A stretch of 64,000 bases of DNA from Marchantia polymorpha subsp. ruderalis (taxonomy: Eukaryota; Streptophyta; Marchantiopsida; Marchantiales; Marchantiaceae), in assembly GCA_037833965.1 (NCBI GenBank), contig AP031357.1, forward strand, positions 18,124,001-18,188,000, given 5' to 3'. Each line of letters opens with the position of its first letter. Within the stretch, counting starts at the first letter, position 1. The position numbers and the translations under genes were made by a program. The notes under the pieces were generated by a model, which searched no databases, had not been told where the DNA came from, and worked only from the letters and a program-made list of their open reading frames with translations. Below, piece by piece: positions 11,213-63,850 of this stretch.

Positions 11213-11250
11213 CGACAGGAATCATGTCTCCTCTGTTTCGATTCCTGTCG
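11213..11250. repeat. Perfect 11-bp inverted repeat
   Basis: CGACAGGAATC at 11213-11223 is matched by its reverse complement GATTCCTGTCG at 11240-11250, with a 16-nt spacer. It is one of a series of short-spacer hairpins in the window. Confidence 0.85.
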
Positions 11251-14200
11251 CCATGTCCAACATGTGGACCTCAATTTCGAGGTCAACCGGTAGATTAGTC
11301 GCTTGCTTGATGAGTTAGAATTTATAATCAGTGTCCTGTGTACATAGAGAAATCTCTGAGAGGGGTGAAAGCCCTGTAAGTATAGTTTCTTAGCTCTTTG
11401 TAAATGATTGCCATAAATTCTTGTTCTACGAGCAGATCCAAAGTTACCGGGCTTTTGATTGCTGTAAATCGGCCCGGACTCATAATCTCTTTCCGAACAT
11501 TGGGCCAATCCCGTGCTGGGCCCTACATACTCCATATCTAGCGGAATCAACCATATCCAAGGCGTCAGTAACCAGAAGAAACCGCGCAGACCTGATGGAA
11601 GCTCTCAATAGGCCAAGCATGCACTGGTAACTTGTCAGTACGAGGGTTTCTGTTTCAGATTCTCGAACCTTCTGATGCACCTGAACATGTGAACACTTGT
11701 TGCAAAGAAAATGAGGCTTGCAGAACTCGAAACCATGACTTACAGTGAGGAGAAACCTCATTTTAGGTTCAGGGGTTACGAGCAACTTACATCAGCTTAC
11801 TTACATAGCAAAGCCTCTCTGCAAGCAGAACAGCAATATCTTTGCATTTGCAGGGACAAATTATAATATCAACTTTCATGTAGAACTCGCGGACAGGTTG
11901 TGAAAGTTTTCAACAATCAAAGCAAACTTGAAAATTATAGATAGTCCCGATAAATTTCTGAAATCTCTGCTCAACGCTTACACAAGACAACAAGCCACAA
12001 TTTACTCTGAGATGCAATGTACCTAGCAATGAGACTAGTCCTGAATTGGATCAAACCTAATGAGGTTGTCTCTCTGCGAATGAAATCTGAGATGATTGAT
12101 TGACTGGTCCCCAAACAGCAAATAGAACAAACGTTGATTATCTACTATGCTCAAAGTATCGTCAACAACTTACTGTAAGATTAATGGGATCTGAAAAAGG
12201 GAATGCACCTCTATAACTCTTAGGTCGGTATATTATGACACTGACATCGTGGTACTTTCCACTGAAAGTTTAGCAACCAAGGAATACCTTTCGCATATAT
12301 TAGACTTCAGCTCGCCTTTAGTTTACCTTCATCTAACCAGGACAGTAATGGACATTGAAGAAAACGTCTGACACTACTTTGAGCAACACACGAGCATGCC
12401 CACTCTCTGCGCTCTCGGGAACAAAGAACTGACAAGGATCGAGACATGACATCTGAGCTCAGGATGACATGGGACAAAATTGCTGCTCCTTCGCATTTCC
12501 AGGTTCATGGGACGTACATCTTCTAACCTTCAAGAAAGAGATTAAATTAACATTCATAATATGTGGTCACGTGGGAAGGACATAATGGCTTCGCATCCTT
12601 GGCATTCTCTCAGCTCGTGCTGTATAATATCCTACAACAAAATTTGCACCAGACCTAACAAGCAGGAGCAAAAGCAATGCTGCTAAATGAACTCTTAAGT
12701 TCTGATTCACAGAGGTGTGGTCGTTGGAAGAAATCGCTTCGGAACCTTCCACCGAAACCTACCTTTAACGACGAATCCAGGCAAGATTGGTGCAAGATCG
12801 AAAACACATCACAGTTGGACAATTTTGCGAAGGAGAAGAGAATGTCGGTAAACATGAGGAGCTGCCAGATCATCGTCTTAGAGCTGTAAAGCATGCATGG
12901 ACTGGATTTTGAACTCCACCGTCTATGAAACAAATGATCAGAACAAAAGCAAGCATTTCAATGAGCATCTACAGATAAGAGCAAAAAGCTCACCTCAAAC
13001 ATCGTAACCTTTTGAATTCGGCTCCTAATTAAGGATTTTTATTCTATTCATTTCTGCGAGCTAAGCATAATTGAACGAATCTGATATCCATCTGAGCAAA
13101 TAGTAGTAACATCTACCAAACCGTTCAGAGTCTCAGAGTCCGAAGACGACTGCTGGAGTGAATCAGAAAGTGCTCATGATCATAGGTCTTGTGTGAATCA
13201 CAAAATCCACCTAATATTTGGTCTGCGGCAACGACTATCCACTTGCCTGTCCCAGTACCTGTGTACTTTGTTACCCAGAGGTGTGTGCGCTTCGCTCTCC
13301 TCTTGCAGGTCTTTCTTCTGGGACTCGCGCTGTCTTCTTCGTCGATGATCCGCTACCGTAGCTATGAGGAATTTTCCGACACCGTTCCACATCTCCTCAA
13401 GGAATCCCCAACATGCCAAGGAAGTAGTGAAAGAGTGTAGAGAAACGGAGGAACTATAGAATACAAGTTTTCTAACAAGTTCCACATGTAAGAAATTTCT
13501 CGATACACGAAACAAAATTGCTTGGAGGATACGTATCGTAGTTTGATAACATACATCCGTGATCTTGTTCCCTGTCCCCTGCTATCGAGCCGACACAGGC
13601 TTTTCAGATTCACCTTCGTCAGCTATTGGCTTCACGATATACTGCTCCGTCATCCCTGCCTGCCTACAGGGTAAGAACTTCACTCCTCAGTGCTCGCGTG
13701 ATGCATAGCAAATAGCACTGTGTCAGACGTGTCACAGGCATGAATCGAAAGGAGCCTCTGCATCTTGCAAATCTTCACATGTCACAAGTGCCCTGTTACA
13801 GCACTGCAGGTATTCATTCATATCAGTACTGCAAGTCTTGTTCATCGGACTGCTTCTCCTGACTTCTGCGAGATCGAGTGTCTAGGTAGTAAGACAAGGC
13901 AACGTACAGCGTGGAATCAGAGTGCAACTGCTTTGCTTCAAGCAGTTGTCCTGAATCGACAGTTGCTTCGCAATTTTAGCATATGGATTGTCTTATTAGC
14001 TTCTTCAGTACTGCGTATGCGTATGCGTCCAGATTGGGACTACCCTGTATCAGATTGATCTTCGATAGAAGGGAGAGATTGGACAAGCTCCTTGGGCTGA
14101 GGGGTGCACATGCTTCCTCCAGCATCCTTGCTAACAAGAGGCTGTGAGCTCAGTGGGGTGATCGTGACTCGATAATCCTGCAGCAGTGCGACATGTGCAG

Positions 14201-14265
14201 ACGCGAGACTTCGAGATAATGCACTCAATCTCGAGGGATGATTTGATCACCTTTTTCCTGTTAGC

Positions 14266-17300: not shown

Positions 17301-17913
17301 AGTGCATGCATTGGGTGGTCCAATGAATAGTTTAGGGTCTTGTCAAGTGTTTTACGTTACGGATGGGTACCATAGATTAATTTCCTCTTATTGATACACA
17401 AGTGAAACATTTCATCTGAAACGAGGGAGTACTTAACGAGGCAGAGTTTCAATGAGTATGGGGTTGCGATCTTGCATTGATCACCAATATCGTTCGATGA
17501 AATTGAAGATGAATCACCAATTTCACAAGGTCGTTCTGTAAGAAGAAACTACCTCGATGTTTTTCTCGATTCCTGTGCGCCAAGAGTCGTGCACGTAGTT
17601 GACACAATTAATGACAGAAAAGGGAGATAAGAAATACTATGATACAATGATGTATGTACTTGCGATACATAGAACAGAATTTCCAATTTATCAAATTCTC
17701 CCGCTTTCTCCCGATGGTATGAAACCAAAAAAAATTTCAAAGTTAAAATTAATATGTGCGAAATCATATTAATATATATTTATTTTAATTTTTTGGTGAA
17801 AAAACTCTTCTATCATTTGTAATCATAATCCTCGGAGCTTCATGCTATGTACTGGTTTTATATTTGCGCTCTGAAGTCGATTCTACATAGGGGTCGAAAT
17901 CATCAAGACTTGG

Positions 17914-19374
<1,461 letters not shown>

Positions 19375-19950
19375 TTTTGCTTATCACCCGAATGACAATG
19401 ATTCTAATCTGCCGAGTGAAACTCGCTCTCAGACCGCTGGGCCGAGATGCGGGTGATGAACAATTGGCAACTCCAAGACTTTATAGGTGGACTTGAAAAG
19501 TACAACGAGTGGTGATTATAGCAATTTTTCATGTTATAATTTTTCTGCATGATGATGAATGTACATATGCTCCAGTCGTGCAGCTTCACCGATCATTTGC
19601 AGAATGATGCAATCTTCAGAGCTTATTACCCAAGTCTTGATCTCTGATCTTACATTCACAAACATGTGATTGCAACAAGCAATGCTTGAATGTACTTGAC
19701 ACGGACATACATATGGAATAGAAAAGTCTAAAACTCGTGTAGGAATCCATGACGTAACGCGAAGACAATCGGTCAAACGGAAAAGTAATCCGTTTTGAAG
19801 GTGAATTAAATATTCTCACAAGCTTTTTATAGTAATTGGCACTAACTAGCTTAAGTTATAGTTAGCTTAACTAGCTTAAGGGCCATATGCAGTGGTTTCT
19901 CCCAGCATTTTGAATTTCCTGCCAGCGGAAGTGACAGGAAAGTTGATTCT
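19375..19950 (-). repeat. Duplicated upstream region of peroxidase copy 1
   Basis: Read on the minus strand, this block matches the sequence upstream of copy 2 (about 20740-21210) and, more weakly, copy 3 (about 24415-25179). The homology therefore covers promoter as well as gene. The segment ACCTATAAAGTC (minus strand, near 19480) is a good TATA box. A frame of about 60 codons (19404-19589) also exists in copy 2 and is probably conserved only because the DNA was duplicated. Confidence 0.8.
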
Positions 19951-20460
19951 ACTATGACGGATTCGAACTATTTACGTCAGAGGGTATGAAACAATAAAGC
20001 ATTCCAAGAGTCATAAAATAACGTGATTGATTTATATCGATAATAGTAGTCCTCTCTATAGCTATGGAAAGAATCTGTGAACATTAGAATACACAATTAC
20101 CTTGACTGTTTATACGATAAGCCCTCCCCCACAAGGTGAATTCGTTTGTTCCAGAAACGAAAGCAAATTTGTTCCATTTGTTCCAGCTGGAAATTCTGCA
20201 AGCTCGAAGCAATCTGCACGCCTCATTATCATAAATTTTAATTTTGAAATTATAAGGCTGTGATGTTGATCAGTGCCTGTGGAATGCATATAATGCTGAA
20301 ATGCCAATGAGGTCGTGATCACATTTGTAATAATAGTTATCACACTAAAAGGGAGGAAAACCCAGAAATAGAAGAAAATATATTTTCGTCTTTGCTTAAA
20401 AGTCAACGAAATTCGTTTTTAAGTCCTCTGACTAGCACCAAGTCGCAGACAAACCAAATC

Positions 20461-20739: not shown

Positions 20740-21210
20740 TTAGTGCCCATTACTATAGAAAACTTGTGAGAATATTTTATTAACCTTCCAAACGGAATAC
20801 TTTCCCGTATGACCGATTGTCTCCGCGTTACGTCCTGGATTCCTACACGAGTTTTAGACTTTTCTATTCCATATGTAAGTCCGTGTCAAGTACATTTGAG
20901 CATTACTTGTTGCAATCACATGTTTGTGACGTAAGATCAGAGATCAAGACTTGGGTAATAAGCTCTGAAGATTTGCATCATTCTGCAAATGATCGGTGAA
21001 GCTGCACGACTGGAGCATATGTACATTCATCATCATGCAGAAAAGTTATAATATGGAAAATTGCTATAATCACCACTCGTTGTACTTTTCAAGTCCACCT
21101 ATTAAGTCTTGGAGTTGCCAATTGTTCATAACCCGTATCTCGGCCCAACAATCTGAGAGCGAGTTCCACTCAGCAGATTAGAATCATTGTCATTCGGGTG
21201 ATGAGCAAAA
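20740..21210 (+). promoter_or_regulatory. Promoter region of the intact peroxidase copy 2
   Basis: This corresponds to the block upstream of copy 1, inverted. At the place where copy 1 has the TATA box CCTATAAAG, this copy has CCTATTAAG (about 21097-21106), roughly 110 bp before the ATG. Copy 3 has CCCATAAAG. If this is the core promoter, the intact gene has the weaker TATA element. The assignment is inferred from position and alignment only. Confidence 0.4.
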
Positions 21211-22766
21211 ATGACTTTCAACAGCCTTAGCATTCATCTTCTTCCAGTTTTTGTTTTCGTATTGTCCACGGTTGGAGTGGATGCTGGAGCTGCTAATCCC
21301 AGCTACGGTTTACAAGATGACTACTATCGTCATTCATGCCCAAGTGCCGAGTCAGTGGTGAGGAGAGTTGTGATGGGGAATGTCACCGTTGTCGACAATC
21401 GGAAGTTTGCTGCGGGCCTCCTACGTCTATCATTTCACGATTGCTTCGTCGAGGTGAGTACCTCGAAACCAGCATCAGGTTGCAGTTGCATGTCATCTGC
21501 ATCTAGTATACATCTGCAGCCTTGCACGGTAAACTCTATGATCGGTCACAAGAAAGTCAGTTCACTGCAAGTTTAATCGCCTTGAGTTCGAGAAGCCAAT
21601 AGGATGGGATGGACATTGAGACTTGGTTTCCAAAACAGTTACTTTAAGCTCGAGAGTGTGTGTGTGCATTATTTGGCAGGGCTGCGACGCATCCGTTCTT
21701 CTGTATGGTCCCGGCACAGAGAAGACTGCACCTGTTAATAAGTTCCTCCAAAGTTTAGAGATCCTTGATAAAGCCAAGCAAGAGCTGGAGAAGATCTGCC
21801 CTGGCGTGGTGTCGTGCGCCGACATCTTGCAGTATGCAGCTCGCGATGGCGTCATCGCCGTAAGAGCATACTCATTCGGCCTTTGCCTGAGTAGCTGCTA
21901 CATGGAACTCAAACTTGACTACCTTCATTTCCATGAGCTTAAATTTTAGCAAAATTGCACTAAATCTGACATCTAACTGAAGGGGCTCTAAATAGGAGTT
22001 GCCCTCCGCTCTTGCCCTCGAAGACAATTCAGAACTCATATTCAGATTTTTGCAACTGGTGTTGCAGCTCAACGGCTCAAGCTGGAAGGTGCAAGGAGGA
22101 CGGAGAGATGGCCGTGTGTCAAGGGCTGAATCCGCCGAAAAAGAAATCCCTTCACAAGATTTTGACTTGGATGGATTGACTGCATCGTTCAAAAGAAAGG
22201 GACTTTCCAGGGATCAAATGGTCATTCTTTCAGGTACAAGCACTTGGATCATTCTGATTAGCTGCTTCAGGAGACACCTCTACTTACAACCAAATTCTGC
22301 ATTACGCTTGAGGGTTTCTATAATGAAATTCATAAATGATGTTGTCTATATTGAACCAGGAGCACATACTTCAGCGGCCGGCCACTGCGAGAACCTCGTT
22401 AGAAGACTTTACAATTTCAATTCGACTCATGCCACTGATCCGTCGATTCCTGCTGCTTATGCGGCCGAGCTGAAGGCCACATGTCCCCGAAAGACATTTA
22501 ACGACACTGTCTTTATCACAATGGATGCGGTCTCAGCATTCTTCGACGCCGGATATTATGTGACTCTCGAAGAGCACAAGGGGGTGTTCACTTCGGATCA
22601 GATTCTGTTCGACGATCATCGTACTCGGCCTCTGGTGAAAACTTTGACTGACTACAAACTGTTCGAGAAGAAATTCCACCAAGCTATGCGCGCTATGGCT
22701 GCAATCGGAGTCAAATTGTATGATGGAGAAATTCGAAAAGACTGTCGCTTTATAAATTCGTACTGA
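21211..22766 (+). CDS. PRX: Class III secretory peroxidase (copy 2, intact)
   Basis: Exons 21211-21453, 21680-21859, 22068-22233 and 22360-22766 join in frame to give 331 residues, the usual length. Residues 1 to about 24 form a hydrophobic signal peptide, so the enzyme is expected in the apoplast or cell wall. The distal site [12 protein letters not shown] carries the catalytic Arg and His. GCDASVLL follows across intron 1, and the proximal haem-ligand His lies in [12 protein letters not shown], split by intron 3. All eight structural cysteines of the class are visible (HSCP, HDCF, GCDA, ICPG, SCAD, GHCE, TCPR, KDCR). The enzyme uses hydrogen peroxide to oxidise phenolics and other donors, in wall cross-linking and stress responses. 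Potential N-glycosylation sites include NVT and NST. Copies 1 and 3 are decayed relatives. Confidence 0.95.
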
Positions 22767-24414
22767 CCAAGTACTCCTCTTACGGCCCCTTTGTAGTTTT
22801 GACTTCAGAGCTCCAGTTCAAAACCACGGCGTATCGTGAAGCACCGAGTATTGTGAGTTGGAATGAAAAGCGTTGCAATTTGTAAACAAAATAATATGTA
22901 GTTATACTAATTAAACAATAAAAGTATCTTCTTCAAAATTCCCGGATGAAGATTTCTATATGCAAATACTGAGATTTTATCTTTAATTTTTATATTTAAT
23001 TCATATTCACAAATAAAGTCTAACTCAACAAACAATACAGTATATCAACGCTTTAGATAAGGTAGATATCGAGAGGGCGAAAGTAGATAAATCCAAAAAT
23101 ATATTATTTTTTATAATTTTCAGTTAAATTTATATGTAAATGTGAAAAAAATTGAGATTCTTAGATCAATAATTTTTTTCAACTCGTAAGTTTGAATTTC
23201 TACAACTTCATATACAATCTATTTCAATCAATATTGAAGCAAATAACTTAAAAAAATGCTTCAAAATTTGTTTTATATTGCGTACAGCCGAATCTAATCA
23301 TCAAGCCCTTACAAAGATGAAAAAATGGTTGTAGAATAATTTTTAATGTAAATCATACTTTATTATCTAAAATCTTAACGATTGATCATATTATTCTTGC
23401 TGTTGCAAATGTTGTTGTGTAACAACACGATTACTAGACAAAACAACTAAAGAGCAACAGCATTGATGAACCATGTGACTTATTACAATTACTACAAAGT
23501 TATTGAAGTAATGCAAAATGTTGGTATGAAAAAAACTGAAAGTGGTGTAAAAAAAAACTTGAACAAAGTGAACCTTGGTATAAAAATGTTAATATGAAAA
23601 TTTTCAAAATAGTATGAATATGTTGGACCAACATATTCATATTTTTGTACCAACTCTGTTGGTACAAAAATATCCAAACTGATATGATATTGCTTCTAAG
23701 ATTATGTCTAAGACAAGGAAAATTTAATGATACTAAGACATCAAAAGTCATGACAGTATATCAATAGTATGACATCTGAACTAATTCTCATTTGGATTTA
23801 TCTTATATGATTTTTAACTAATGAATCATGAAATTAAAAGTGTGATGTTTTTTTATATCCATATTCAAAAATTTTCTTACAATCTTACTCTAACATTGAT
23901 TATCAAATGTAGTTTTAAAAATAAATCTTTCATTATGAAAACAATTCGAACAATAATATTTTATTTTATTTTACTTGATGGATAGTAAATCTTAATTTTA
24001 CATTTAATGATTTTAGAAATGACCTTGGTATTTAATGGTCATGTTTCATACTATTCCTTTTTTATTTTTTTATTTTAGGTATCATATTATGAATTTTGAG
24101 TCAGGTGGAGTGGATGTCACTATGACTTTGAGTGGATTACGGTTGCCACTGTGATACACTTTCAAATTAGATGTATAGATTATGATCATCACCTTGTTTC
24201 ATAGAAAAGGTGATCCCAGGTTTAGCGGGAGTACTTATTAACAGTCAATGTAATCATACATTGTCGTTTTGACAAATGCTTTCTATTGCTTTAGAGAGAA
24301 CTCTGACTACTGTTTTCCATAGAAATCAATCACACTACTTCATGACTATTGGTATGCTCTGTTGTTTATACACGTTATAACGTAAACAGTTCGAACACGT
24401 TAATCTACCATCAA
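22767..24414. other. Peroxidase 3' UTR and AT-rich spacer
   Basis: The first 100 bp or so (CCCCTTTGTAGTTTTGACTT near 22786) are conserved in the other peroxidase copies and form the 3' UTR. From about 22880 the sequence is very AT-rich with no gene. A pair of adjoining hairpins lies at 23614-23673. Confidence 0.6.
23614..23673. repeat. Two adjoining perfect hairpins
   Basis: ATGAATATGTTGG (23614-23626) pairs with CCAACATATTCAT (23628-23640) across one base. Sharing two bases with it, ATATTTTTGTACCAAC (23639-23654) pairs with GTTGGTACAAAAATAT (23658-23673) across three bases. Confidence 0.9.
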
Positions 24415-25179
24415 CCTTCGTAGCACTTCCACTAGCAGCAACTCCAGAATGTTCGTAGAAACCACTGCATATGGCCCTTGCTGGCAGTCCGGTAATCATT
24501 GATATATTCCCCTACTGGGGCGAAGCGCCATGATAGCAGAATTTTTTTCCGATCCATGTGATACTAGATGGGTCTTCTCATCCTTTTCGCTGTATTATCT
24601 TAGTGCTCGTTACTGTAAAACATATATGTCGGTCGTCAAAGATCTCACGAGCGGCCGAGTGCCAGCTTCGCCATAGAAACTCCGATCTGAAGTTGACAGA
24701 TCCACAGGGATCTTGGAGATTCGACATGTCGAATCGTGAGAATACTGAAGAACATTCAGAACGGAATACTTTTCTGTTTCACCAATTGTCACGGCGTTAC
24801 GTCCTGCATTTCAGCACGAGTTCTAATTCTTGTATTCCAGATATATGTCGGTGTCAAGTACATCCAAGCCTTCCTTCTTGCAACAACACATTTGATTGCA
24901 ATATCAGAGCTCAAAAGCTGGCTATTAACCTCTGAAGAGCGCATTATTTTACTGCACATGATCAGTGAAACTGCAAGACTAGAGAATATGTACATTCATC
25001 ATCATGAAATAGTTATAAAATGGAATATTATTATAATCACCTCTCGTAATTTTCAAAGCCTCCCATAAAGTCTTGCAGTCGCCATGTGTTTGTCACCCTC
25101 ATGCCAGCTCAATGGTCTGAGAGCGAGTTCCACTCAGCAAATAGAATCATCCTCATTCCGGTGGGAAACACCAGAAAGC
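24415..25179 (+). repeat. Duplicated upstream region of peroxidase copy 3
   Basis: This is a diverged copy of the blocks upstream of peroxidase copies 1 and 2. It shares CCACTGCATATGGCCCTT-type sequence (24463-24480) with the copy 1 flank (complement near 19880), ACGAGTTCTAATTCTTGTAT near 24815, and the CATAAAGTCTTG core element near 25063. Confidence 0.7.
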
Positions 25180-26621
25180 ATGGCTTTTACCTAACTTACC
25201 ATTCATCTTCTTCCAGTTTTTGTTTTCCTCTTGTCGTCAGTCAGAGTGGATGCCGGCGCTGCAAAACCCCACTATCGATTACAAGATGACTACTATCGTC
25301 ATTCATGCCCGAGTGCCGAGTCAGTGGTGAGAGAGTTGTGCGTGCGAATGTCAGTGATCCCAGCCGTCGCATCCATTTGAGGTTTGCTGCGGGCCTCCTA
25401 CGTCTGTCATTTCACGATTGCTTCGTCGAGGTGAGTACCTCGAAACCAGCATCACGTTGCAGTTCCATGTCATCTGCATCTAGTATACATCTGCAGCCTT
25501 GCACGGTAAATTCTATGATCGGTCACAAGAAAGTCAGTTCACTGCAAGTTTAATCGCCTTGAGTTCAAGAAGCCAATTGGGTCGGGTGGACATTGAGACT
25601 TGGTTTCACATGCTACAGCTACTTTAAGCTCGAGAGTGCGTGTCTGTGCATCATTTGGCAGGGCTGCGACGCATCCGTTCTTCTGAATGGTCCTGGCACA
25701 GAGAAGGCTGCAGCTGTTAATAAGTTACTCAAAAGTTTCGAGATCATTGATAAGGCCAAGCAAGAGCTGGAGACCGTCTGCCCTGGCGTGGTGTCATGCT
25801 CCGATATCTTGCAGTACGCAGCTCGCTACAGCGTCGTCGCGAGCTGCGTACTGCAAGAGCAGACTCCTGGGCCTTCGACTGCGTAGCTGCTACATTGAAC
25901 TTGAACTTGACTACCTTCATTTCCATGAGCTCAAATTTTAGCACAATGCACTGAATGTCACATCAATTCAAGGCGCTCTTAACAGGAATTGAAGAGAATT
26001 CAGAACTTATCTTCAGATTCTTGCAACTGGTGTTGCAGCTCAACGGCTCAAGCTGGAACGTGCAAGGAGGACGGAGAGATGGCCTTGTGTCAAGGGCTGA
26101 ATCCGCCGAACAAGAAATCACTTCACAAAATCTGGACTTGGATGGATTGCCTGCATCTTTCAACAGAAAGGGACATTCCAGGGATCAGATGGTCATTCTT
26201 TCAGATACATACACCTCAATCATTCTCACTGCAAGGACCTGCAGTATGCTGGTGGGTGTCTGTCATGAGCCTCAAGGATGATGTTGTATGTGTTTCACCA
26301 GGATCACATACTTCGGCAGTCGGCCACTGGGACGCCCTTGTTACACGACTTTACAATTTCAATTCGACTCATGCCACGGATCCGTCCGTCGATCCCTGCT
26401 GCGTATGCGGCCCAGCTGAAGGCCTTCTGTCCCCGAAAGACCTTCAATGACACGGTCATTGTCCAGTTGGATGTGGTCTCACCATTGTTCGAAGCCGGAT
26501 ATTATGTGATTCTCACACAACGCAAGGGAGTGTTCTCTTCGGATCAGATTTTGTTTGACGATCCTCGTACTCGGCCCCTGGTGAAATCTTTGACGGACAA
26601 CAAACTGTTTCAAACGGAACT
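25180..26621 (+). pseudogene. Class III peroxidase pseudogene (copy 3), interrupted in exon 4
   Basis: It is co-linear with copy 2 but broken many times. Codon 5 is TAA. One G is missing in GTGGTGAGAGAG, and a TGA precedes the distal site, although [12 protein letters not shown] itself survives. Exon 2 is open ([15 protein letters not shown]) but its donor is gone, replaced by a reverse-complemented copy of the exon end (25808-25857). The exon-3 donor changed from CAG|GTAC to CAG|ATAC at about 26203. The proximal site keeps the His but reads GHWDA, so a disulphide Cys is now Trp. About 4 extra bases (CCGTCCGTCGAT) shift frame near 26387. Similarity stops abruptly at about 26621 after NKLFQTE, and the expected C-terminus and 3' UTR are found again only at 30758-30870. 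Confidence 0.9.
25808..25857. repeat. 19-bp perfect inverted repeat replacing a splice donor
   Basis: The end of peroxidase copy 3 exon 2, CTTGCAGTACGCAGCTCGC (25808-25826), is repeated as its exact reverse complement at 25839-25857, with a 12-nt spacer. Copies 1 and 2 have CGTAAGAGCAT at this point, including the donor GTAAGA. Only copy 3 has the inverted arm. Confidence 0.95.
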
Positions 26622-26799: not shown

Positions 26800-26842
26800 C
26801 CGCCACTTTCTCTCCTTTGAACTCCAGGAGAGAAAGTGGCGG
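26800..26842. repeat. 17-bp perfect inverted repeat
   Basis: CCGCCACTTTCTCTCCT (26800-26816) is followed, after nine bases, by its exact reverse complement (26826-26842). It lies just beyond the 3' end of the damaged F-box frame. Confidence 0.95.
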
Positions 26843-27554: not shown

Positions 27555-27653
27555 GGGGACAACCACTGACTCGGCGTTCTCGGCGCCGTATGCCGAGAAC
27601 GCCGAGTCAGTGGTTGTCCCCTGACTCGGCGTTCTCGGCATACGGCGCCGAGA
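27555..27653. repeat. Triple fold-back (29-bp and 32-bp perfect inverted repeats)
   Basis: 27555-27583 is the exact reverse complement of 27593-27621 (29 bp, 9-nt spacer CGCCGTATG). Overlapping it, 27578-27609 is the exact reverse complement of 27622-27653 (32 bp, 12-nt spacer). One segment is therefore present forward, inverted and forward again. The two same-orientation copies are offset by 55 bp, which is not a multiple of three. The structure lies inside the F-box coding sequence. Confidence 0.95.
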
Positions 27654-27724
27654 AACGGAACAGATCCTCGTTGCTCGCGTTTAGCACAGTGCTCGGCACC
27701 GCTGCCACGTTCCGGCCCTCCACA

Positions 27725-28216
27725 ACCACATTGGCCTTCTCGTGCACGAAGAATATGAGGTCCTCCATGTGGAGTCCTCCAAGCTTGAGAGGAATCGCGA
27801 ACTCGGCTTGGTGCAGGTCGAGATTCATTCTTCTGACAAAGAAAAGATAGTACCCTCGCTGGAGCACGAGCTTTCTCCCTACTGCGGACTTCAGATACGG
27901 CCACTGCGACTCGCAGAACATCCTCCACAGCTTCTCGTCGCTCGCCTCCTCTCTCCACTCCTTGCTCACGACCACATTGGCCTTCTCGTGCACGAAGAAT
28001 ATGAGGTCCTCCATGTGGAGTCCTCTAAGCTTGAGAGGAATCGCGAACTCGGCTTGGTGCAGGTCGAGATTCATTCTTCTGACAAAGAAAAGATAGTACC
28101 CTCGCTGGAGCACGAGCTTTCTCCCTACTGCGGACTTCAGATACGGCCACTGCGACTCGCAGAACATCCTCCACAGCTTCTCGTCGCTCGCCTCCTCTCT
28201 CCACTCCTTGCTCACG
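27725..28216. repeat. 246-bp near-identical tandem duplication
   Basis: 27725-27970 and 27971-28216 are two copies of a 246-bp unit (82 codons, in frame with the minus-strand F-box gene). The only difference I found is CCTCCAAGC versus CCTCTAAGC. The near identity points to a recent event or an assembly duplication. Confidence 0.93.
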
Positions 28217-28413
28217 CAAGTGCACGCCGCCAAAGTACGGGGGTCGCGCACCTTCTGGAGCACTAGCATCGCCAGCAGCCGCTGTCGAACCTCCTCCGAC
28301 ATCACGAACGACAGCGGGCTCAAGGCGCCCGAGCTCCCACTGCTCATTGCGCTCTCCGCTTTCAGTCTTCTTGCCGTCCAACCTTCCATCCCGTCTAGCA
28401 CTCTTTATGTTCT

Positions 28414-28551
28414 CTGCGGCGATGGACCGCCGCAGTGCCAATTGCCTTCTAGATTCTGAGTCCGTGGCGGACTCAGACGCTGACAGTTGCAAATTCATGT
28501 TTGCAACGCACAGACGAGCGCCTGCGTTGTTGACACTGCAGGCGCTCGTCT
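28414..28551. repeat. Three hairpins between the F-box and TPR-SET frames
   Basis: CTGCGGCG/CGCCGCAG (28414-28421/28428-28435), CTGAGTCC/GGACTCAG (28456-28463/28469-28476) and AGACGAGCGCCTGC/GCAGGCGCTCGTCT (28512-28525/28538-28551) follow one another in 140 bp, with loops of 6, 5 and 12 nt. This is the gap between the two divergently oriented gene remnants. Confidence 0.9.
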
Positions 28552-30618: not shown

Positions 30619-30652
30619 ACATAGTTAGACTAGCTAACTAGTCTAACTATGT
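30619..30652. repeat. 15-bp perfect hairpin with 4-nt loop
   Basis: ACATAGTTAGACTAG (30619-30633) pairs with CTAGTCTAACTATGT (30638-30652) around CTAA. It lies about 100 bp before the right junction of the inserted block. Confidence 0.95.
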
Positions 30653-34137: not shown

Positions 34138-35151
34138 TGAAGAAAAGAACCGGTCTAGTTACCATATCAGTGTTGCAGCAGGAGTTTCAGGAGCATGCCG
34201 TACAAGCAACTGAGACATGCGTGTCGGTTTCTTCATGAAAGAAGACGACGACAGTCAACTCGCCAATAAAGTCTCAATAGATCTTCTTAGTTCCATTGTG
34301 TGATTTTTGTGCAAAGAGCGTGAAATTAGCGTAGACGTCTCCATCATGCTCACGATTAAATTAGGTAGAGTCTACAGTTACATACATTGGATCCATCAAG
34401 TCACATATTGTGGGTTGCAGGCTGCAAATTGTGACCATATCAACCATTTATCGCTGTGATTGGGGCACTCGTCTTACAGTTTTTTTAGCATCACACGCCA
34501 ATGTATCAAAGGGTCTTTCCAGCATCGAAAAGTTTTGTTCGTGGATTCCTAAGAAAAAAAAACTACGACTACGACCTTTATTTTTATCCTTGCAATGTAC
34601 CTGTTGCTGCTTTGATGATGGCTTAGCATACAATATTGAATAACAAACATGTACATTGTTCGCTATATCGGTGGGCCGCAATCTTGCACTTCAATTGATC
34701 AATGCAGGTGCTCGTCCTCATGTCCTGAATTTATGAAACGTCTAGGAGCAGACACGATTCTCGGAAGGCGCTTAGCTCTCGAAGTGTTGGTTTTTCCTGA
34801 AAAACTAGACCTCGGCCTAAAGCTAATTATTAGTGGTGATATTGCTAGTCGAGTTCTTAAATCTCTAGTATTTGTTGTTTATGTGCTTATGTATTTGGAT
34901 GAAATGAACTCATGGAAATATGCATGAGCCTTTCTCATCAAGATATATGTTGAAGACCTTCACTGACCTTCACTGACCTTCGCTGTAAAGAAGAGGAGTG
35001 CTACCACTACATTGTGTTTTTTTTTCGCCAGTTACCTTCATGCTCTGATTATCATATCTTACTCTTCCAGATTCATTCATAACATTCTGTAAAGGCCACA
35101 TGAAATAGCTGGAGAAGTCCTAACGATAGATACTCTGGACAACAAGGATAA

Positions 35152-35230
35152 TGTATTAGCAAGGATAACTTTTGAGCATACTGGATCGAATTATCGTCAA
35201 GTATGCTCAAAAGTTATCCTTGCTAATACA
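35152..35230. repeat. 31-bp perfect inverted repeat
   Basis: 35152-35182 is the exact reverse complement of 35200-35230, with a 17-nt spacer. The arms begin TGTATTAGCAAGGATAACTT. No gene, target duplication or further transposon-like sequence flanks it. Confidence 0.96.
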
Positions 35231-35701
35231 CAAAATAGTTGGAAATTAAGATGATGGGAGTTTTGTACGAACGTGCTCATATATAGTGGGTGCTGTAGTG
35301 CCATTTGGAATTAATTGGAAAATGAGACATCTTGTACTCAACAAGATAGTGCAGCTTGTCCCAATTGATTAATTTATCAAGCGTTTTACATGTTTTGAAA
35401 AGAGCAAACCTTCAACAACCACGCCCTTCCACTCCAGGTTGCAAGCCTCCACATGTCAAAGTCGAGAAAGAACAGCATACGCCTGCTCAGGGGACAATGC
35501 GATGCAACGATCTCGTTGAGTGGGTAGCTCTTTGAAAACCTCAACCATAACCTTCCGAGAGATTATGCTTATCATGTTCATCCCTATCGTGATGCTCAGT
35601 GAGCCGCACAACCATCCGCTCTGCCCTTTTCCATCCTATGTATCTTACATACGCTGAGGAGATTGGGACATAACTTATGTCGCATAAGTATTCCGCAGTC
35701 C

Positions 35702-37154: not shown

Positions 37155-39858
37155 ACACTTCGAATCTGGTGCCGCTAACCTAAAAAAATTGGCGAATGCA
37201 GTTTAACTGAGTAACACCGATGCATCAGTATGAGGAGCAAACTCAGAGATAGCATGAGGATCCAGAAGAGAAATCAGCAGTACACCCCGGGCGGCGCTCG
37301 ACGATTTGATTGTCTCAGGACGGAAGTGGTATTTATATGTGTCGAGACGAATGGTGGCGGAAGTCTCGGGCCTCCGTTGGCCGCTCGGCAAGTCGGGACC
37401 ACCGGATGAAAGTTAGGGTTCCGGCTCAATCATGATCAAGGGATCATGGCACGACTCTCCTCTAAGGTGGCTGTGACACGCTTTGTCTTCCAGAAGTTTC
37501 TCGTTAATAAAGGGAAATCGCGTTAATTAAAGCATATGACAATGCGTGCTTTTGAAAACACGTATAATTCTACCTCGCTCTATTGACGCCTTAGTGATCA
37601 TCGTGTCTATCCATTTACTGCAGATGAAATGGATATGGTATGTATTACTTTTCTTTCAACATTATCTAAAAAAAATATATTTTCAAAATGTACAGGGTAA
37701 CGGAGGAGACTGAGGTATAGTAGGAAATAGTTGCATGTAGATATGGTTATAAGCGAGCAGATTTAATTTATAAAAATTTCCAACATGGATTGACTTTCAT
37801 CTTAATATTGATATAAAATATCTGATAAATTTGATAGAAGTAATTGTATTCTAAAGTGTCGTTTTTTTGTGAATTTTGACGTATGTCGTTTTTACATGTG
37901 AAGTGTGGCGAATATATTTTAAAGTAGGTTTTGAGAAGTTGATAGTCTTGAAAATTGAAAGTAAAAACATGATAGGGTGTACACTGTCTTTATCAGATTC
38001 TTCAATTATAACATATATATTTGTAAACTCATGATATTAGTTTGATAATATTAGATATGTCGATGCACCTTGTCTAATATAATCAAACTTTCGCCTTGCA
38101 GTGTTATATCATCATATTAAAGAAAATTAAGAATCAAAATTTGAAATGAGCATGTCAAAAGGTTTCAATAGCCCAAAAAGTAAGATGGTTTATTTTTTGT
38201 AAGTTGTGGATATATTATTTTATCTATCTGAGTATATTAATTAAGTTCATAGTTCTGCACATCGATAGGATTGCGGGAGTAGTTGGCCATCCTCTCAAGT
38301 TATGTTCTTTACTTAAATAGTTTGAAACTAAGTTCTGTATGTACTCTCTTGCACTTTGTGAGAAGCCTTTATCCTATCACGAAATATATCATGTTATATT
38401 TGAAATATGTGAAAGTTCACACAATCTATTTTTGTCTAATTTTGGTTAATATAATATTAGAGAGCGGCTAATTATCCCTAAATTTATATTAAGTATCCTT
38501 CACTTTAGCGTTCTTTCACTACTCGAGGCTTCCACTCCCTGTCTCCTACCGTCTGTGCTATGCGGTCTCTTCCCCTGAACTTGAAATCCATCAAATGTGA
38601 TGCCCTGGGATTTCCTGAACTTGAAGAGGATGAGATAGACTTTCGAAAGTTTATCAAAAGCAATTTTGTTTCACTATTTTTCGTTCACCAATCATAGACT
38701 TCCCGAGTAACTCTTGGTACTTGATGAGTAGGCAGGGTAAGGATAACTAGCTGCTCCTTAATATTATTATTTGAATAATAAATATAATAATATTACATGT
38801 GCAAAATTACTTACTTATGTTAACAAAGTAAACTAATTACACTATCAGGCAAAGCCGGCCTATATTTCACAACTTTTTTTGATATAGAGAAATATATCCT
38901 TCTCTCAGAAGAAATTCCTCTCGCACAATTTTAATAAAGATCAAACTACAAATATGATGAGGTATATGGTGTTGATCAATATACATATATATATGCAAAA
39001 CTTATGTATGCAAATCCATTACAGTGGACATCATGAATGGAGAATGGAATAAATTGACCAAGTCATGACTGGATGGATAATTTCAACTAAAGCACGCATG
39101 CTCTGAAATTCATAGAAGTGGTAACCTTCTGGACGAGTTCTACTTCTGGACGATACACTCAACTATCATATCCTGCTTATTCCATTTCATGGCAAAGTTT
39201 AGGATGATTGTACATGAGAAATTATTACAGCAGCCAAACACCTGCCGGGGTTTAGACAGTATTTCTTCTCTGTATGCCATGAATATATGTCACCATCATG
39301 CATTGAATCGTCGCGAAGCTTGCAAGCTCGTTGTTTGGATGTTCATTTTACCTGGACTCGACTGAGACAAAGTCACAAGATAAATCGTGCGAAAGCTTGC
39401 TTAGAGATAAGATGCTAGGGACAACTGAACAACGAAGTCGTAAGAAAGCATCAATCTAGGTTGCAAGCAAATGACTTCAGAGTAGAAAGTCTTCGAAACA
39501 GTGACCAACTTCGATCAGTATGGGACGTGCTTTTCGCTGCTCAACATTCAGTGTGACAATACCTGCAGCCCAGCTTAATATACAAAATGTGACTGAACAC
39601 CCCACGGCGATTGTTGCTCACTGCCATTCTACATAGAAGTATTAGGGTCTGCGTAGACGAGGCTCCACCCCTTAGCCTCGCCGTTGTGAACAGACAAGTA
39701 GGTACCAGAAGTAAATACTCCACTAACCGAAAGAGAGGATGAAAGAACGAGTAAGGTATAAAGACGATATCAACATTGATATTTTTGGATCCTCGCTGTC
39801 TGGAGAAATAGACGATTGTGCACCCCACTCCCTCCGCCCAACACCGTCAGCAACCGCG

Positions 39859-39904
39859 ATGGAAACAAACTCTCCACCAATCATAGCGGGGAGTTTGTTT
39901 CCAT
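39859..39904. repeat. 14-bp perfect inverted repeat
   Basis: ATGGAAACAAACTC (39859-39872) pairs with GAGTTTGTTTCCAT (39891-39904) over 18 nt. Confidence 0.93.
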
Positions 39905-42900
39905 GCCGTTAGAAGAGAATGCATCCTCCGCTGTCATCGTTACTTCTGTAAAAGTTATCATCGATGGAGTCGACGACGGCCATGAAGAAACCTTGAAGTC
40001 TTACTCCTTACATTCAAATTATGTGTTTTACAGTTGACTTCTATGTGTTAAACCGGATATCTAAGTGGTGCATCCTTGAATTTTCTTGGCACATGTTGTC
40101 CATCTTTCATTTATATTCAGAGTATGATCTCGGGAGCAACGTGACGCGCTAAGTAATGTGCCACAATTAGGATACAAGGGTGACGCAATAGCAAACTTGA
40201 CGTGAGGAACATTTACAAACACTTCAGTACGAAACTGGGAAACATGGCTTTCATTCTCTTGCCCGGACAATCCGGTACACATTTAGCAGACATATTTTGT
40301 AAGAGTTTGGATTGGAAATCAATATGGAAGAAAGTACTAGGACAAGGAGCGTTTCTGCTGTAGACACAATCATGACAAATCTGAGGTGCCCAGTTTGACA
40401 AGATTATGCAGTTAGAACTCACTCCAAGCATGAGAGAAAAAGACCACGAGGCCCCTACTACGTGGAAACTCTCACGACGAAGAGTCTCCAAAACCCCACT
40501 TTCTACTCAATGTCGAAGAAAAAATTTGTATAAAAATCTTCACGTTGCAACTGGAAAAAACAATTTCATCCTTAATTCTATACACCACATTTCCAAGGAG
40601 ATGGTGTGGATGAGAGTATTCGATGTGGGTTCAACGGAAAAGACTAAAAATCGGTTTAAAAAGTCATTCCAGTTTGACGTTGAGGTTAAGGGGAACTGGA
40701 GAATCGATAATTGCTGAAGTGCAATTTTCACTTCCCAGTTAGAGATGCGTCTTCTACAATTGTACATGATGCACTGACGCCATGTCAAATGCCATCGCCT
40801 GATTCGTAGTTCTAAGTCTTGGGAATAATGTTTGAAGGCGAGGATCTCAAGCAGCCACTGACCAGCTAAATCTAAACCTCGAGGCTTTTTCTGTTTTGCT
40901 ACTAAAATACGGCCCTTTCTGTATTGCGGTATGCTCAGGCTCTAGAGGAACACAATCAAGAGGGCATCATCTGAAGGTTTTATGTTGGGAACCCGTATTT
41001 TGTTTCACTGGGCAAGTTTAACAAGTGATCATCAGTTACCAGTTTTCCCGAAAACACGATAAATACAATTCCTCCTTCTTTCAAACTCTCAATTTGCCCC
41101 CCGAAATTTTTGGGATCACAGAAGCAAAAGGCATCTTGAGTATTTACTTTTGCTGACTCATGATATAAGCTTCTTTTCCCTACCGGATATAACTAGAAGA
41201 AAGCAGACATAGTGGTATGTACACAGTAACACGTAGAACAAAGAAGATAAAACGTATAAAGATTCAAACAATATTACATTTTAAACCAACAATCGTGAAG
41301 AACTAATATTCACACACAACAATGCAAAAAGAATCCAAACACAAATACGTATATCATCTTGATATAAATTACATTAAAAAGAAACATAAAATTTTTATTT
41401 AAAAAATTTCACTTTGTGTCATTCAAAGCTACAAACAGCATTCAGTATTTCAGGTTGTGTCAAACAAATCTAATACAACTAATTAGTAAATCACTAATTT
41501 GAATTGACAAGAACTCCTTTCAACTTACCCTACATTCATGTTTTCGAACATGTATTCTTTCTATCAGATATGATAATTCTATGAGAAAGAATCTAAATCT
41601 CTCAATAAAAATTCGATTGAATTAAATTTTATTTATTTCAGAACAGAACTATTAGTGGTTGTTATTTATAAAAAAGTTGTGAATCAATATAATTTTAATT
41701 TATTTATTTACTCAAATTTTAATTTCATAAAAAAATTTTACATAATAATTAGCTTGAATATATTGGCATTTTTAACTAATAAAATTATATTTATTTATCA
41801 ATTAATTTCTAAAATAATTTTTTTGTGATTTGATTATCACAAATAATGTTTGCAACATATTATTTAAAATTCATCTCAATGATGTTGTAGTATATTTGGG
41901 ATCAAAGTTATCTAAATTACATATTTATTTCAATAGAAATATAGGTTGTTCAAGATATAAAACCAGTTCATTTATAATGTAATTTAAAATTATCAGTTGA
42001 TGATAAAAATATATTAATTGAAAATATTTTTATAAAAATAGTGTTATCTAGATATATTTATTATGTTATCAATTCACTATAAATGTAATGATTGGTGGAA
42101 TAGAATACTTTATTCTTGTGTCATCCTCAAAAATCATATAATTATTTTCAAGAGAACTTTTCTTGAAATAAAGCATGAAGTGGAGAAATTTTTTTTTCTT
42201 TTATTCTTCATTTGATAATAAATGTTTTAATCTGAAATCTTTCAAACGAAATACATATACGATGTTAAGAATTTTATTTTTTTATCTACCATTAATGTTT
42301 TCTAGTCAATATCTCTTTTCTTTAATAATTTATTTAAAAATATCACATTCTTGAGATATTTAACATACATTCCTTAATTTCCAAATACTCGTTCATTATG
42401 TTCTTCTTTATTGTAATTCTTATATTGATATACAAACATTGTCAATAAACTTTTTATCATATTTGTCAATCAAATTATATAAAATCTTTCATATGTTGCA
42501 ATATTATCTTAAATTTAAAAAGAATTCACAACCATATGATCTTTTGTGAGAATCTAACTTAATTTAGTTTATTACCAAATAATATACTCCAACAGAATCA
42601 TATATATAACGTTGCTAAAATGCATGGGATACATGGACATTTATAATTTTCTGATCGATACAAATTTAGATTTGTGTGTATATGTATTTTTAGTTATACA
42701 TAGTGCAATATGACATATTTCTCATTACTCTTCTTCATTTCATTCCCACGATGGTGGGCTCTTCAAAACTTTCATGGCATGTAAGAACTTTCATGTTGTA
42801 TTGTAACACTTCTGCACGTCATGCAGAGGCGTAAAACATTAAACAAGTGAGGTCTAAGTAGCTACATTTGGGTTCATCTCACACCTCGCCCCAAATTTTG

Positions 42901-45558: not shown

Positions 45559-48246
45559 ATTGAAATTGATCCGATAATCTCCCCAAATTTTTCAGTCCTA
45601 ATCTAGAATTTGAATTATGCTTCGAGCCGAAGTAGAAACTAGAACTTACGCTCTAGATTGAGATACGCGGCAAATCACAGGAACGAATTGAGGCTCTGAC
45701 AAATGTGCTCCTCGAATTTAAGCGACCGAATTCCTCTAACTGTGTCTAGAGTTCTGCTGCATTCAACCCTAGGTTAACCTCAATCACCCAGAGATGGAGG
45801 ATTTACTTCCCGAGCGACTTCCAGGACTCTCAGGAATCCACAAACCCATCGTAACACAAAGCAGAGGCAGCGCACAAGGAGCATAAAATCTGGCGAGCTT
45901 GTGAACCCACTTGCCCATCTTTCCCACTCCTTCGGCACCTTCACACCGCCCTAGCCGCACATCCTCCATTCCCTGAACTTTCAATTCCCTTCTCTGTGGT
46001 ATACAAATCACCAGTCAGTCCCCACTGGAGTAATTCGATCGGTCCTCGCTCAAGCCAAATTCAGCAAACATCTTCCCATCGACCAAGAGAGAAAGAAAAA
46101 AGAATCTTGTTCCTCAAACTCCATCCACATCGTAATTTCCACCTCCCGTATGTCTACATCGGGCCGCATCGGGATTTCGTTCCCGACGCAGTGCTCGGAG
46201 TGGCTGTCGGTTTCTCGAGGCGCAACTGTTTTGCTTTCGCTGGGCCTGCGCCTGTGACAGCCGCCGGACGACGAGGCCAGCGGAGCACCTTCCGAACGAG
46301 CAACGGTTTCGTTCCTCCCCCGGAGACCGGGCCTCCGGGATCAGGTGCCAGCCCGTCTTACCCCTTCTCCTGAAGCTCATGTGTTACGTACTTCTGTTTT
46401 CTTCCAAGACCTTGTGAAGGTCGTGATATTAACGTCGGGCTCAGCCGATCCTCAATTCTCTTAATTGATGCTTAATTTTCCTCTGACTTATGCAACGTAC
46501 AGGGGGCGGGTTTTGGATAATTTGCTCATAACATTAGAACTTGACAAAATGGAAAATGAGCTCAACGCATTTCTAAGAGTAAATGTGGAAATTTCATTGT
46601 TTGGCCCGAAATATTATCAAAACCATCTATCACGTGTTATAGTACTTAGGATTTCTTGAAATTTCTTGATTTATTTTATATTTTGAATTCGATTTTTTTC
46701 TTCTTCCTAGTTTTATTAGAAAACGTGTTCGGTTTTGTCATGATATGAGTATTGATGCATTTATTCCTGTCTTATACATTTGGATGTATAGTTTGGAGCA
46801 TGTATAGTTGTAATATTGCGTTTCGTATATTAGATAGCCTGTACGCATAAAATTACATCTTGTCGTAAAATCTCACATCGATCAGGTAAATAGAGGATTC
46901 GTGTTGTTGTATGAGAGAAATATTGATATCTAGGCCTAATTTTGTTTGCCCATATTGATTATATTATTAAATTTTTTTGTTTCGTGATTTCTTTTAGAGT
47001 CTCTTCCTCCATTCTTCTTTTGTTACTAGAGATGCATCCTTTTATTATTAATAAAAATACATACACATAAAAAATGTTTGAAATAAGGACAGTTTTTCTT
47101 TAAGACATCTTTTATATGCAGACAAGCAAACTCTAATCTGTAAGTACAACTCACATGGTTCCTGTTCATATCTTGCAGGTTGAACATTTCATTCATCAAG
47201 TAGAGCTTGTTCGTTCCACTTCTGAGATACAAGTGATACACGTGTTTGCAGGGAGTATAAGGTTATTACAAAGTTGAGTTGACTTGTATGAAAATCTCAA
47301 GTGACTTCTGATTTTTTTCAGCAGGTTAAACTCAATTTCTTGGCAAAATGAATGCTTAATCAAAAAGCAAGTCTTCTTTCAAGGTGTTTATGAGTTTGTA
47401 GTCCTCATAGATACTTAACTCAATGGAGATGACACACTTTTGTTAATCCAAGAATTATTAAGAAGCCCATAACGAGAACACATTATCATGTCTTCTTCAA
47501 TGGTCACACAATTTACTCGAAGTTAACTTCTCTTCTCATTAGAGGATTTTTTTGAATGTCAAACCTTGAGTTTACCGTCTTCTCTTGACGGTAAACTTGA
47601 AGAAAGAACTAGCATGTATCATATTGATCATAGTATATAGATCATTGACCTTGATAGCAAGCCTGAAACTAGAAAAACTTGTAGACAAGCACAAATTTTT
47701 GACGAGATGCAATCCCTCACAATTCAATAACATATAGATCATTCACAATGACAGCAAGCCTAAAACTAGACAAACATGTAGACAAGCACAAATCTCTAAC
47801 AAGATGCAATCCTTTACGATTCAATTGCAGTTTAGAAACAACATTTTGACATGCAATGTCTGAGAAGTACTTTGTAACTTGGATTTAGTCCAACAAGGAG
47901 AATTGTTGTATCCTAGAACTCAAACATATGTGATTCAGAAGTCATCATCTTGACTCCATCCTCTCAGAAGAAAATGATTTATTGGCGGATAGATCACGTA
48001 GTAAATCCAACTATTCAATCATGTCAAATTTTTTAAGGAAATAAGAGATTGAATCTTGAAACTCTTCATTCTACTCCAGCAATTATTCGTTGATCCCATC
48101 CTGTGTTACCCACAGATCCGTCGTACGCGCCGCCATGATCATCAACTCATCTTCATATGGTTTTGATTGTTGGATCTGATCGCTGCATAAAGATACAATG
48201 TGATGTTCAAACAATTAGCGTTTGAGACTCAATATCACCTTCTGAA
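45559..48246. other. Spacer upstream of the channel gene
   Basis: 45559-46400 is GC-moderate and should contain the promoter and leader of the minus-strand channel gene. Overlapping frames 45996-46373 (+) and 46114-46380 (-) have no recognisable domain. From 46400 the sequence is AT-rich and gene-free. A paired phrase beginning AAACTAGA and mentioning CTTGTAGACAAGCACAAAT or a near copy recurs at about 47667 and 47764, showing a diverged direct duplication of about 95 bp. Confidence 0.5.
47569..47597. repeat. 11-bp perfect inverted repeat
   Basis: AGTTTACCGTC (47569-47579) pairs with GACGGTAAACT (47587-47597) over a 7-nt loop. One mismatch further out the pairing continues (TTG/CAA-type). Confidence 0.88.
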
Positions 48247-56980: not shown

Positions 56981-56999
56981 CTGCATGTACGAAAAGGCC

Positions 57000-63000: not shown

Positions 63001-63760
63001 CAGTGGAATATTGAGTTCTTCTGTCTAGTGATTTGGTACTAATAACTTGAAGTTTTCCATGTAGATCACATTTACCCTGCTTTTGATCACATGAATATTG
63101 CGCTTCATTTATAGGCTTGAATGCATGTAGTACTGTTAACGTAAATTTCCAAGGTACAATGATTCCAAAAAGATGTATGACTTTGATAAACAACTTGCTG
63201 ATTCCAAGAGTGCAAGTGAAGTACGAATTTTTTACCTAACAAACTTATGCAGTTATTGAGGATGTATTGTATCTATATAATCTTTGTGTTACAAAGTTCT
63301 GAGATACATTCCTCAAGTATAAGGTGTCCATTCACTTACCTTTTAGCACAAATCCTAATTCCTCTACATCTTTATCATAGATACAAACTTTGATAAAGAA
63401 TTATGAAGGTGATTGGGTTGAAGATTTCTTAAAATGTAAAGAGAATTCGTGTGAAAAAATCCTCCTCTTTGTCAAGTTGAAGAAATAATATATTCCGATG
63501 AAGAGAATGTCTTATAATTAGCAGTATGGATGAGTGCTGATTGTATGTACCCTCATTAATTTTCGGATTTGTGATTACAGATTTTCAGCATATGTTTCGA
63601 GTAAAGATGTATGCAAGGCACATGATCCAATAGCATGTGCATTACATATAAAGAAAGATATTCTATTATATGTTGAAATTTCTGTAAGCTAAATATTCAT
63701 ATTTGTTTGTATTTCATCATTTAAAATAGTAAGGTTTATTTATGCTTTTGCTTAACGAGA
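60001..63760. other. AT-rich spacer
   Basis: No recognised gene or RNA. Frames such as 61394-61738 and 61887-62210 are open by chance-like lengths and lack domains. 60400-61400 is especially AT-rich. Confidence 0.5.
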
Positions 63761-63850
63761 ATGCATGCTAGTGAATATATTCTTCATAATGTTCTTCTTC
63801 ATAATATTCTTCATAGATGCATTATGAAGAATATATTCACTAGCATGCAT
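63761..63850. repeat. 31-bp perfect inverted repeat
   Basis: 63761-63791 is the exact reverse complement of 63820-63850, with a 28-nt spacer that itself repeats TTCTTCATAAT-type words. The arms begin ATGCATGCTAGTGAATATAT. No flanking gene is recognised. Confidence 0.96.

What the first reader, a model, noticed from the sequence alone, without database searches (positions are those of the whole stretch)
11213..63850. Window-wide crop of short-spacer perfect inverted repeats
Arms of 8-32 bp with mostly short spacers occur at 11213, 14266, 23614, 23639, 25808, 26620, 26800, 27555, 27578, 28414, 28456, 28512, 30619, 35152, 36490, 37060, 39859, 47569 and 63761. They share no sequence with each other, so they are not one MITE family. 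Perfect pairing of up to 32 bp suggests recent, local, templated origin, as in intra- or interstrand template switching during replication or repair. Where an uninverted relative exists (25808, 27555), the inverted arm is clearly a new copy of the adjacent sequence. A genome prone to such fold-back mutation would be notable.
Basis: partly seen in the sequence, partly recalled or inferred. Interest (0 to 1): 0.72.

Follow-up and report, generated by a model that had tools for sequence, protein, structure and literature searches.

The report
Fold-back mutations in decaying plant duplicates
A plant chromosome stretch carries about a dozen long perfect hairpins; at least three arose when DNA synthesis briefly folded back and copied itself, two of them damaging genes, which is a known kind of mutation caught here with its unmutated relatives alongside.

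Summary
The inverted repeats are real: 19 of 19 listed sites pair, 12 with perfect arms of 14-34 bp. Counting non-overlapping arms >=14 bp with spacers <=30, the window has 9 in 64 kb and a 190-kb sample of the same genome has 4; five shuffles of each gave none. Six of the 9 lie at 23.6-30.7 kb, mostly in decaying duplicated peroxidase and F-box genes. Paralogues polarise some sites. At 25807, 26800 and 27555/27577 relatives lack the inverted arm; each event can be read as a 3' end folding back on a short seed, copying itself and returning. 27555-27654 is one 55-bp small inverted triplication that stops an F-box frame still open in a C2 copy; 25807 adds 11 bp and destroys a likely splice donor. 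Not all sites are new: 28512, 28414 and 30619 are shared with paralogues, 37060 is quasi-palindromic in one, 39859 lies in a multicopy repeat. For 35152, 63760 and 23613/23639 no relative was found. The mechanism is supported and known (rad27 yeast, great apes). A fold-back-prone genome is not shown: no other plant genome could be measured, and the window's excess is weaker for imperfect arms.

The parts
23613..23641 (.). perfect inverted repeat, arms 14, spacer 1; first of two back-to-back hairpins, no relative found in the genome
23639..23673 (.). perfect inverted repeat, arms 16, spacer 3; second of the pair
24736..26609 (+). third, degenerate peroxidase copy (P3), which carries the 25807 event; its sisters are 20766-22663 (+, P2) and about 17823-20114 (-, P1)
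25807..25858 (.). derived palindrome, arms 20, spacer 12; +11 bp against both sister copies; GTAAGA (likely splice donor) in the sisters reads GCAAGA here
26800..26842 (.). palindrome, arms 17, spacer 9; left arm rewritten (+7 bp) against the C2 paralogue, where 10 of 17 positions already pair
27555..27654 (.). small inverted triplication: forward 30 nt, inverted 37 nt, forward copy with an 18-nt direct duplication; 55-bp insertion absent from both C2 copies that align here
27607..28404 (-). F-box gene copy with a 246-bp in-frame tandem duplication; its frame stops at ...ENAESGDNH inside the inverted triplication
28414..28435 (.). weak hairpin (arms 8, spacer 6); the same core pairs in both C2 copies, and in the L003/L008 copy it is an 18-bp perfect hairpin with spacer 2
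28455..28477 (.). weak hairpin (arms 10, spacer 3); in the C2 copy L002 an extra inverted arm makes a 17-bp hairpin here
28512..28551 (.). inverted repeat, arms 14, spacer 12; same pairing in the C2 copy L002 (14 of 14), so probably older than the duplication
30619..30652 (.). inverted repeat, arms 15, spacer 4; shared with C2:16132328 (14 of 15 pairs)
35152..35230 (.). inverted repeat, arms 31, spacer 17; no relative found in the genome
37060..37154 (.). inverted repeat, arms 16, spacer 63, beside two snoRNA matches; imperfect pairing (by eye) in the C8:17276463 paralogue
39859..39904 (.). inverted repeat, arms 14, spacer 18, inside a multicopy repeat (not read as a new event)
63760..63851 (.). 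inverted repeat, arms 32, spacer 28; no relative found in the genome

Best explanation
The polarisable strong hairpins are footprints of short-range fold-back template switching, and the undated ones probably are too. A 3' end (stalled nascent strand or repair end) pairs with a short complementary seed (4-8 bp) a few bases upstream, copies up to 37 nt of itself, then returns to the proper template. The result is a quasi-palindrome made perfect (26800), a new palindrome (25807), or a small inverted triplication (27555-27654). SHOWN: relatives without the inverted arm at three places, short seeds in one relative of each, and damage to two genes. INFERRED: that the hairpins without relatives at 23613/23639, 35152 and 63760 arose the same way, and that local density is high because the cluster lies in duplicated peroxidase and F-box genes that are decaying and tolerate such scars. 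Whether the fold-back happened at a fork or a break is not resolved.
For: 25807: both sister peroxidases in the window lack the arm (7 and 5 of 20 positions pair), and sister P2 has a 6-bp seed stem with a 4-nt loop where the copy would start. 27555/27577: both aligned C2 F-box copies lack the 55 bp (0 of 30; 5 and 7 of 34 positions pair), and the order is forward-inverted-forward with an 18-nt direct duplication. 26800: the C2 copy has 10 of 17 pairs and is 7 bp shorter. A fourth case lies in the C2 copy L002 (5 of 17 pairs in the window). Scan of 40 paralogous chains: 12 templated-inverted hits, 8 in the F-box family and 4 in a palindromic tandem unit of L025, against 1 hit summed over four shifted controls. 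The excess over shuffles is strongest at short spacers: window 17 against 1.05 at spacers <=20. The same kinds of product, including a 66-bp palindrome-extension insertion, are described in yeast lacking Rad27 (PMC5677150, section 12 part 1).
Against: Only 3 window structures are polarised as derived, and 26800 rests on one comparator. Seeds are not seen in every relative: P1 lacks the 6-bp stem and L005 has no stem with a short loop at 27577; the window copy at 25807 no longer holds the whole P2 seed. Five listed sites are shared with paralogues, quasi-palindromic in one, or in a repeat (28512, 28414, 30619, 37060, 39859). In 24 chains without window or F-box sequence (2151 differences) the only hits are the L025 tandem units. 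The shifted control is lenient, because shifts of 300-600 fall beyond the ends of short chains. The 47569 empty-site test went mostly against an insertion: of 9 other places, 1 scored better without the 18 nt, 4 worse, 4 unchanged.
Confidence: 0.83

Rival explanations
1. The fold-back happened at double-strand break ends (foldback synthesis by Pol delta with end joining, or Pol theta snap-back) and not at replication forks.
For: Yeast breaks yield inverted templated duplications of mostly 5-34 bp by foldback on microhomology (PMC11724301, abstract), much the size seen here; the legend of S7 Fig in PMC5068794 describes snap-back insertions as reverse-complement (passage).
Against: 25807 and 27555 align with net gain and little or no loss and return to the original sequence, which fork switching gives directly; the title of that legend calls snap-back a minor part of delins.
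Confidence: 0.35
2. The hairpins are miniature inverted-repeat or foldback transposable elements.
For: 39859 lies in a repeat with further copies on several chromosomes; perfect arms with a spacer fit the outline.
Against: Genome searches around 23613, 35152 and 63760 found only the locus itself, as did three sample hairpins, though the tool warns that no match does not prove rarity; the derived arms at 25807 and 27555 are copies of adjacent gene sequence.
Confidence: 0.05
3. They are functional RNA hairpins kept by selection (for example young miRNA precursors or snoRNA-associated stems).
For: 35130-35250 folds at -56 kcal/mol, z -13.1, and 63740-63870 at -52, z -10.5; 37060 keeps a quasi-palindromic stem beside snoRNA matches in a paralogue.
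Against: No Rfam match at these hairpins at gathering thresholds; two of the polarised ones damage genes; no small-RNA data were available.
Confidence: 0.08
4. Assembly or library artefact.
For: No reads could be examined.
Against: Hairpins shared by paralogues on another contig (28512, 30619) are not what read chimeras give, and the derived arms have short seeds in relatives.
Confidence: 0.04

Closest known systems
Fold-back template switching in rad27 (FEN1) yeast (PMC5677150)
   Same: quasi-palindrome to palindrome correction; palindrome extension with duplication (66-bp insertion there, 55-bp here)
   Different: here standing sequence of a plant genome, with no FEN1 defect known or tested
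Small inverted triplications (PMC13334657)
   Same: forward-inverted-forward order with a reverse-complementary junction
   Different: 37-nt inverted part and 18-nt duplication against medians of 160 and 148 bp there; spacers of 7 and 10 nt against a median of 30 bp
Short-range template switch events in great apes, four-point model (PMC7954356)
   Same: clustered differences explained by a local reverse-complement copy, which can create perfect inverted repeats
   Different: arms of 17-34 nt here against a median copied length of 12 there; found here by looking for long hairpins, so the sizes are not comparable as samples
Foldback inverted duplications at yeast double-strand breaks (PMC11724301)
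   Same: inverted copies of mostly 5-34 bp primed by microhomology
   Different: no break known here

Membership tests
short-range template-switch mutation | a relative without the event exists and the new segment is a reverse complement of sequence next to it | tested here: met
   25807, 26800, 27555/27577; not testable for 23613/23639, 35152, 63760, where no relative was found
short-range template-switch mutation | short complementary seed at the switch point in the pre-event relative | tested here: met
   one relative per site: 6-bp stem in P2, 4-bp (loop 9) in L005 at 26800, 5-bp (loop 7) in L008 at 27577; P1 and, at 27577, L005 lack such a stem
short-range template-switch mutation | arises in replication rather than break repair | not testable with these tools
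   needs mutants or de novo events
small inverted triplication | DUP/INV/DUP order with short inverted-complementary junction | tested here: met
   27555-27654: 30 nt forward, 37 nt inverted, 18-nt direct duplication
small inverted triplication | size near 148/160/148 bp with about 30-bp spacer | tested here: not met
   18/37/18 nt; below the medians but inside the ranges quoted in PMC13334657 section 2.4 (duplication from 7 bp, inverted part from 20 bp)
MITE or foldback element | dispersed copies sharing the arms | tested here: not met
   no other copy found for 23613, 35152, 63760; met only for 39859
miRNA gene | processed small RNAs from one arm | not testable with these tools
   no RNA data

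The most novel reading that the evidence does not exclude
This plant lineage has an elevated rate of fold-back template switching (for example through weakened Okazaki-flap or RPA control), visible genome-wide as an excess of short-spacer single-copy hairpins and repeatedly inactivating duplicated genes, and supplying ready-made hairpins for new small-RNA genes.
Probability: 0.12. Interest if true: 0.7.

Novelty: new member of a known kind. Interest (0 to 1): 0.34.

Why it matters
Template-switch mutations often pass as unexplained clusters of differences. Here single events can be read base by base beside unmutated paralogues, and two of them damage genes (a likely splice donor lost, a reading frame stopped). 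They give a starting set of loci for measuring fold-back mutation in a plant genome; the listings I saw (capped) showed no such study of a liverwort nuclear genome.

Tried and rejected
One transposon family: rejected for the sites without relatives, kept for 39859. All sites recent: rejected because 28512, 28414 and 30619 are shared with paralogues and 37060 is quasi-palindromic in one.

Genome-wide proneness: only partly testable. In the sample, arms >=10 bp with spacers <=30 exceed shuffles about fourfold (32 against 7.8), but direct repeats in the same bins are as common (37) and, at >=14 bp, more common (14 direct, 4 inverted). In the window inverted and direct are about equal at >=10 bp (19 and 21) and only at >=14 bp do inverted lead (9 and 2). 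Imperfect arms with spacers <=100: score >=14, window 11 and sample 16; >=16, 7 and 12; >=18, 4 and 8; >=20, 4 and 4 (some sample rows are tandem copies of each other). Published inverted-repeat counts for Arabidopsis, maize and human (PMC4237412, passages) use other definitions and cannot be compared. I gave no rate per substitution, because my paralogue set was chosen after seeing the hairpins.

47569: removing the 18 nt of left arm and spacer improved 1 of 9 other matches, worsened 4 and left 4 unchanged, so an insertion there is not supported.

Full report
Where it is. The window is G000:C8:18124001-18188000 of a 241.5-Mb assembly in 9 contigs, one of 5.6 Mb and the rest 24-33 Mb. Nine contigs with one small one, peroxidase, F-box and SET/TPR frames, a thioredoxin reductase closest in the PDB to 1vdc (I recall 1vdc as the Arabidopsis enzyme) and C/D snoRNA matches suggest a complex thalloid liverwort; the name is inference only.

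Observation. All 19 sites exist within one base of the stated positions; 12 have perfect arms of 14-34 bp and 7 have arms of 8-11 bp. With overlaps merged and low-complexity arms dropped, arms >=14 with spacer <=30 number 9 in the window (by these are 23639, 25807, 26800, 27577, 28512, 30619, 35152, 39859, 63760) and 4 in 19 sample stretches totalling 190 kb; arms >=10 number 19 and 32, against shuffle means of 1.55 (20 shuffles) and 7.8 (6 shuffles). Six of the 9 lie between 23.6 and 30.7 kb. Without merging, one search counted 11 and 7 for arms >=14, the 7 including TA and tandem-unit repeats, and 0 in five shuffles of each. The excess is strongest at short spacers: window 17 against 1.05 at spacers <=20; at 101-400 it is 26 against 17 in the window and 77 against 55 in the sample. 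In the sample a two- to threefold excess remains at spacers of 31-100. Two sample stretches (L026, L027) are near neighbours of the window.

Events that can be polarised. (1) 25807: three peroxidase copies lie in the window. The third has 11 extra bases that complete a 20-bp arm; the two sisters pair at 7 and 5 of the 20 positions. Sister P2 has a 6-bp stem with a 4-nt loop where the fold-back would start; P1 does not, and the window copy itself no longer has the whole seed. In both sisters the replaced bases include GTAAGA, in P2 directly after the codons AARDGVIA, which I read as the intron donor from the recalled gene structure of class III peroxidases; the third copy reads GCAAGA. The third copy also has its later part open in two different frames, so it looks like a decaying gene in any case. 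(2) 27555-27654: the alignment with C2 copies L005 (same place as L002) and L008 (same place as L003) shows a 55-base gap in both. The window reads 30 nt forward, 37 nt inverted, then forward again with an 18-nt direct duplication. The frame of the F-box copy stops at ENAESGDNH inside the inverted part, whereas the frame of L002 runs on for about 150 residues after ENAE (341-residue open frame). The L003 frame is broken elsewhere (154 residues), so one of two comparators is open. L008 has a 5-bp stem with a 7-nt loop at the switch point; L005 has only 4-bp stems with loops of 15-20; the window's own second forward copy holds an 8-bp one. (3) 26800: the C2 copy pairs at 10 of 17 positions and is 7 bp shorter on the left arm; one comparator only. 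(4) In L002 an added inverted arm gives a 17-bp hairpin that pairs at only 5 of 17 positions in the window; one comparator, so the direction is by parsimony.

Systematic scan. 40 paralogous chains from the held sequence (26.1 kb aligned, 4034 differences, overlapping pairs included) gave 12 hits of >=12-nt templated inverted segments: 8 in the F-box family (several per site) and 4 in a palindromic tandem unit of L025; four shifted controls together gave 1. That control is lenient, since long shifts leave short chains. The scan missed 25807, presumably because exact identity to the relative is broken by another change; the second method, which tests the hairpin in the copy itself, found it. The 24 chains without window or F-box sequence (2151 differences) gave only the L025 rows.

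Older or different sites. 28512 pairs fully in L002 and 30619 at 14 of 15 in its C2 relative, so both probably predate the duplications. The core of 28414 pairs in both C2 copies, and in L003/L008 it is an 18-bp perfect hairpin. 37060 is quasi-palindromic, by eye, in C8:17276463. 39859 lies in a multicopy repeat; homology of many copies begins 7 bases before it, while copies on C9 and C8:18213401 also match further left. No relative was found for 23613/23639, 35152 and 63760, nor for three sample hairpins, so such hairpins exist outside the window; the tool warns that no match does not show rarity.

Mechanism and literature. Sections read: PMC5677150 section 12 part 1 of 2 and section 13, whose rad27 yeast events include quasi-palindrome correction and a 66-bp palindrome-extension insertion, and which finds signs of the same process in ordinary yeast evolution; PMC13334657 section 2.4 and Discussion; PMC7954356 passages and the section on DNA properties (4017 events, median copied length 12). 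Abstracts: PMC8794818, PMC8604942, PMC11724301. Passages: PMC5068794, PMC4237412. The kind of mutation is therefore known. Searches for template switching with Marchantia (3 papers listed), plant genomes (8 listed), plant palindromes (15 of 44 listed; 12 of 733) and liverwort terms (10 of 188) listed nothing that by title or abstract start describes these events in a liverwort nuclear genome; subscription journals are mostly not held.

Verdict. Ordinary in kind, clean in anatomy.

Noticed in passing
27721-28216: 246-bp in-frame tandem duplication (99% identical, 82 codons) inside the F-box copy; the C2 copy L002 has a single unit.
   Followed up: partly
36595-37030 (-): snoZ102_R77 and SNORD14 matches with a third conserved stretch between them (36740-36831) that Rfam did not name; five other places (C9 twice, C3, C7, C4) match SNORD14 and that stretch together, a hint of an unlabelled snoRNA.
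   Followed up: no
39852-40060: Hairpin in a multicopy repeat with copies at C8:18198691-18213483, C5, C3, C9 and C6; the element type was not identified.
   Followed up: partly
L025:987-1461 and L015:3369: Tandem units built on the palindrome CCTGTGCACAGG within a repeat shared by stretches of C9 and C4.
   Followed up: no
L016:3049-3155 and L022:6783-6939: Long imperfect hairpins in the sample (arms of 53 and 43 bp) without other copies found; could be miRNA-like.
   Followed up: no
47400-47900: Diverged repeat found at ten places including this one; four partial matches end or begin exactly at the 47569 hairpin, but the empty-site test did not support an insertion.
   Followed up: partly
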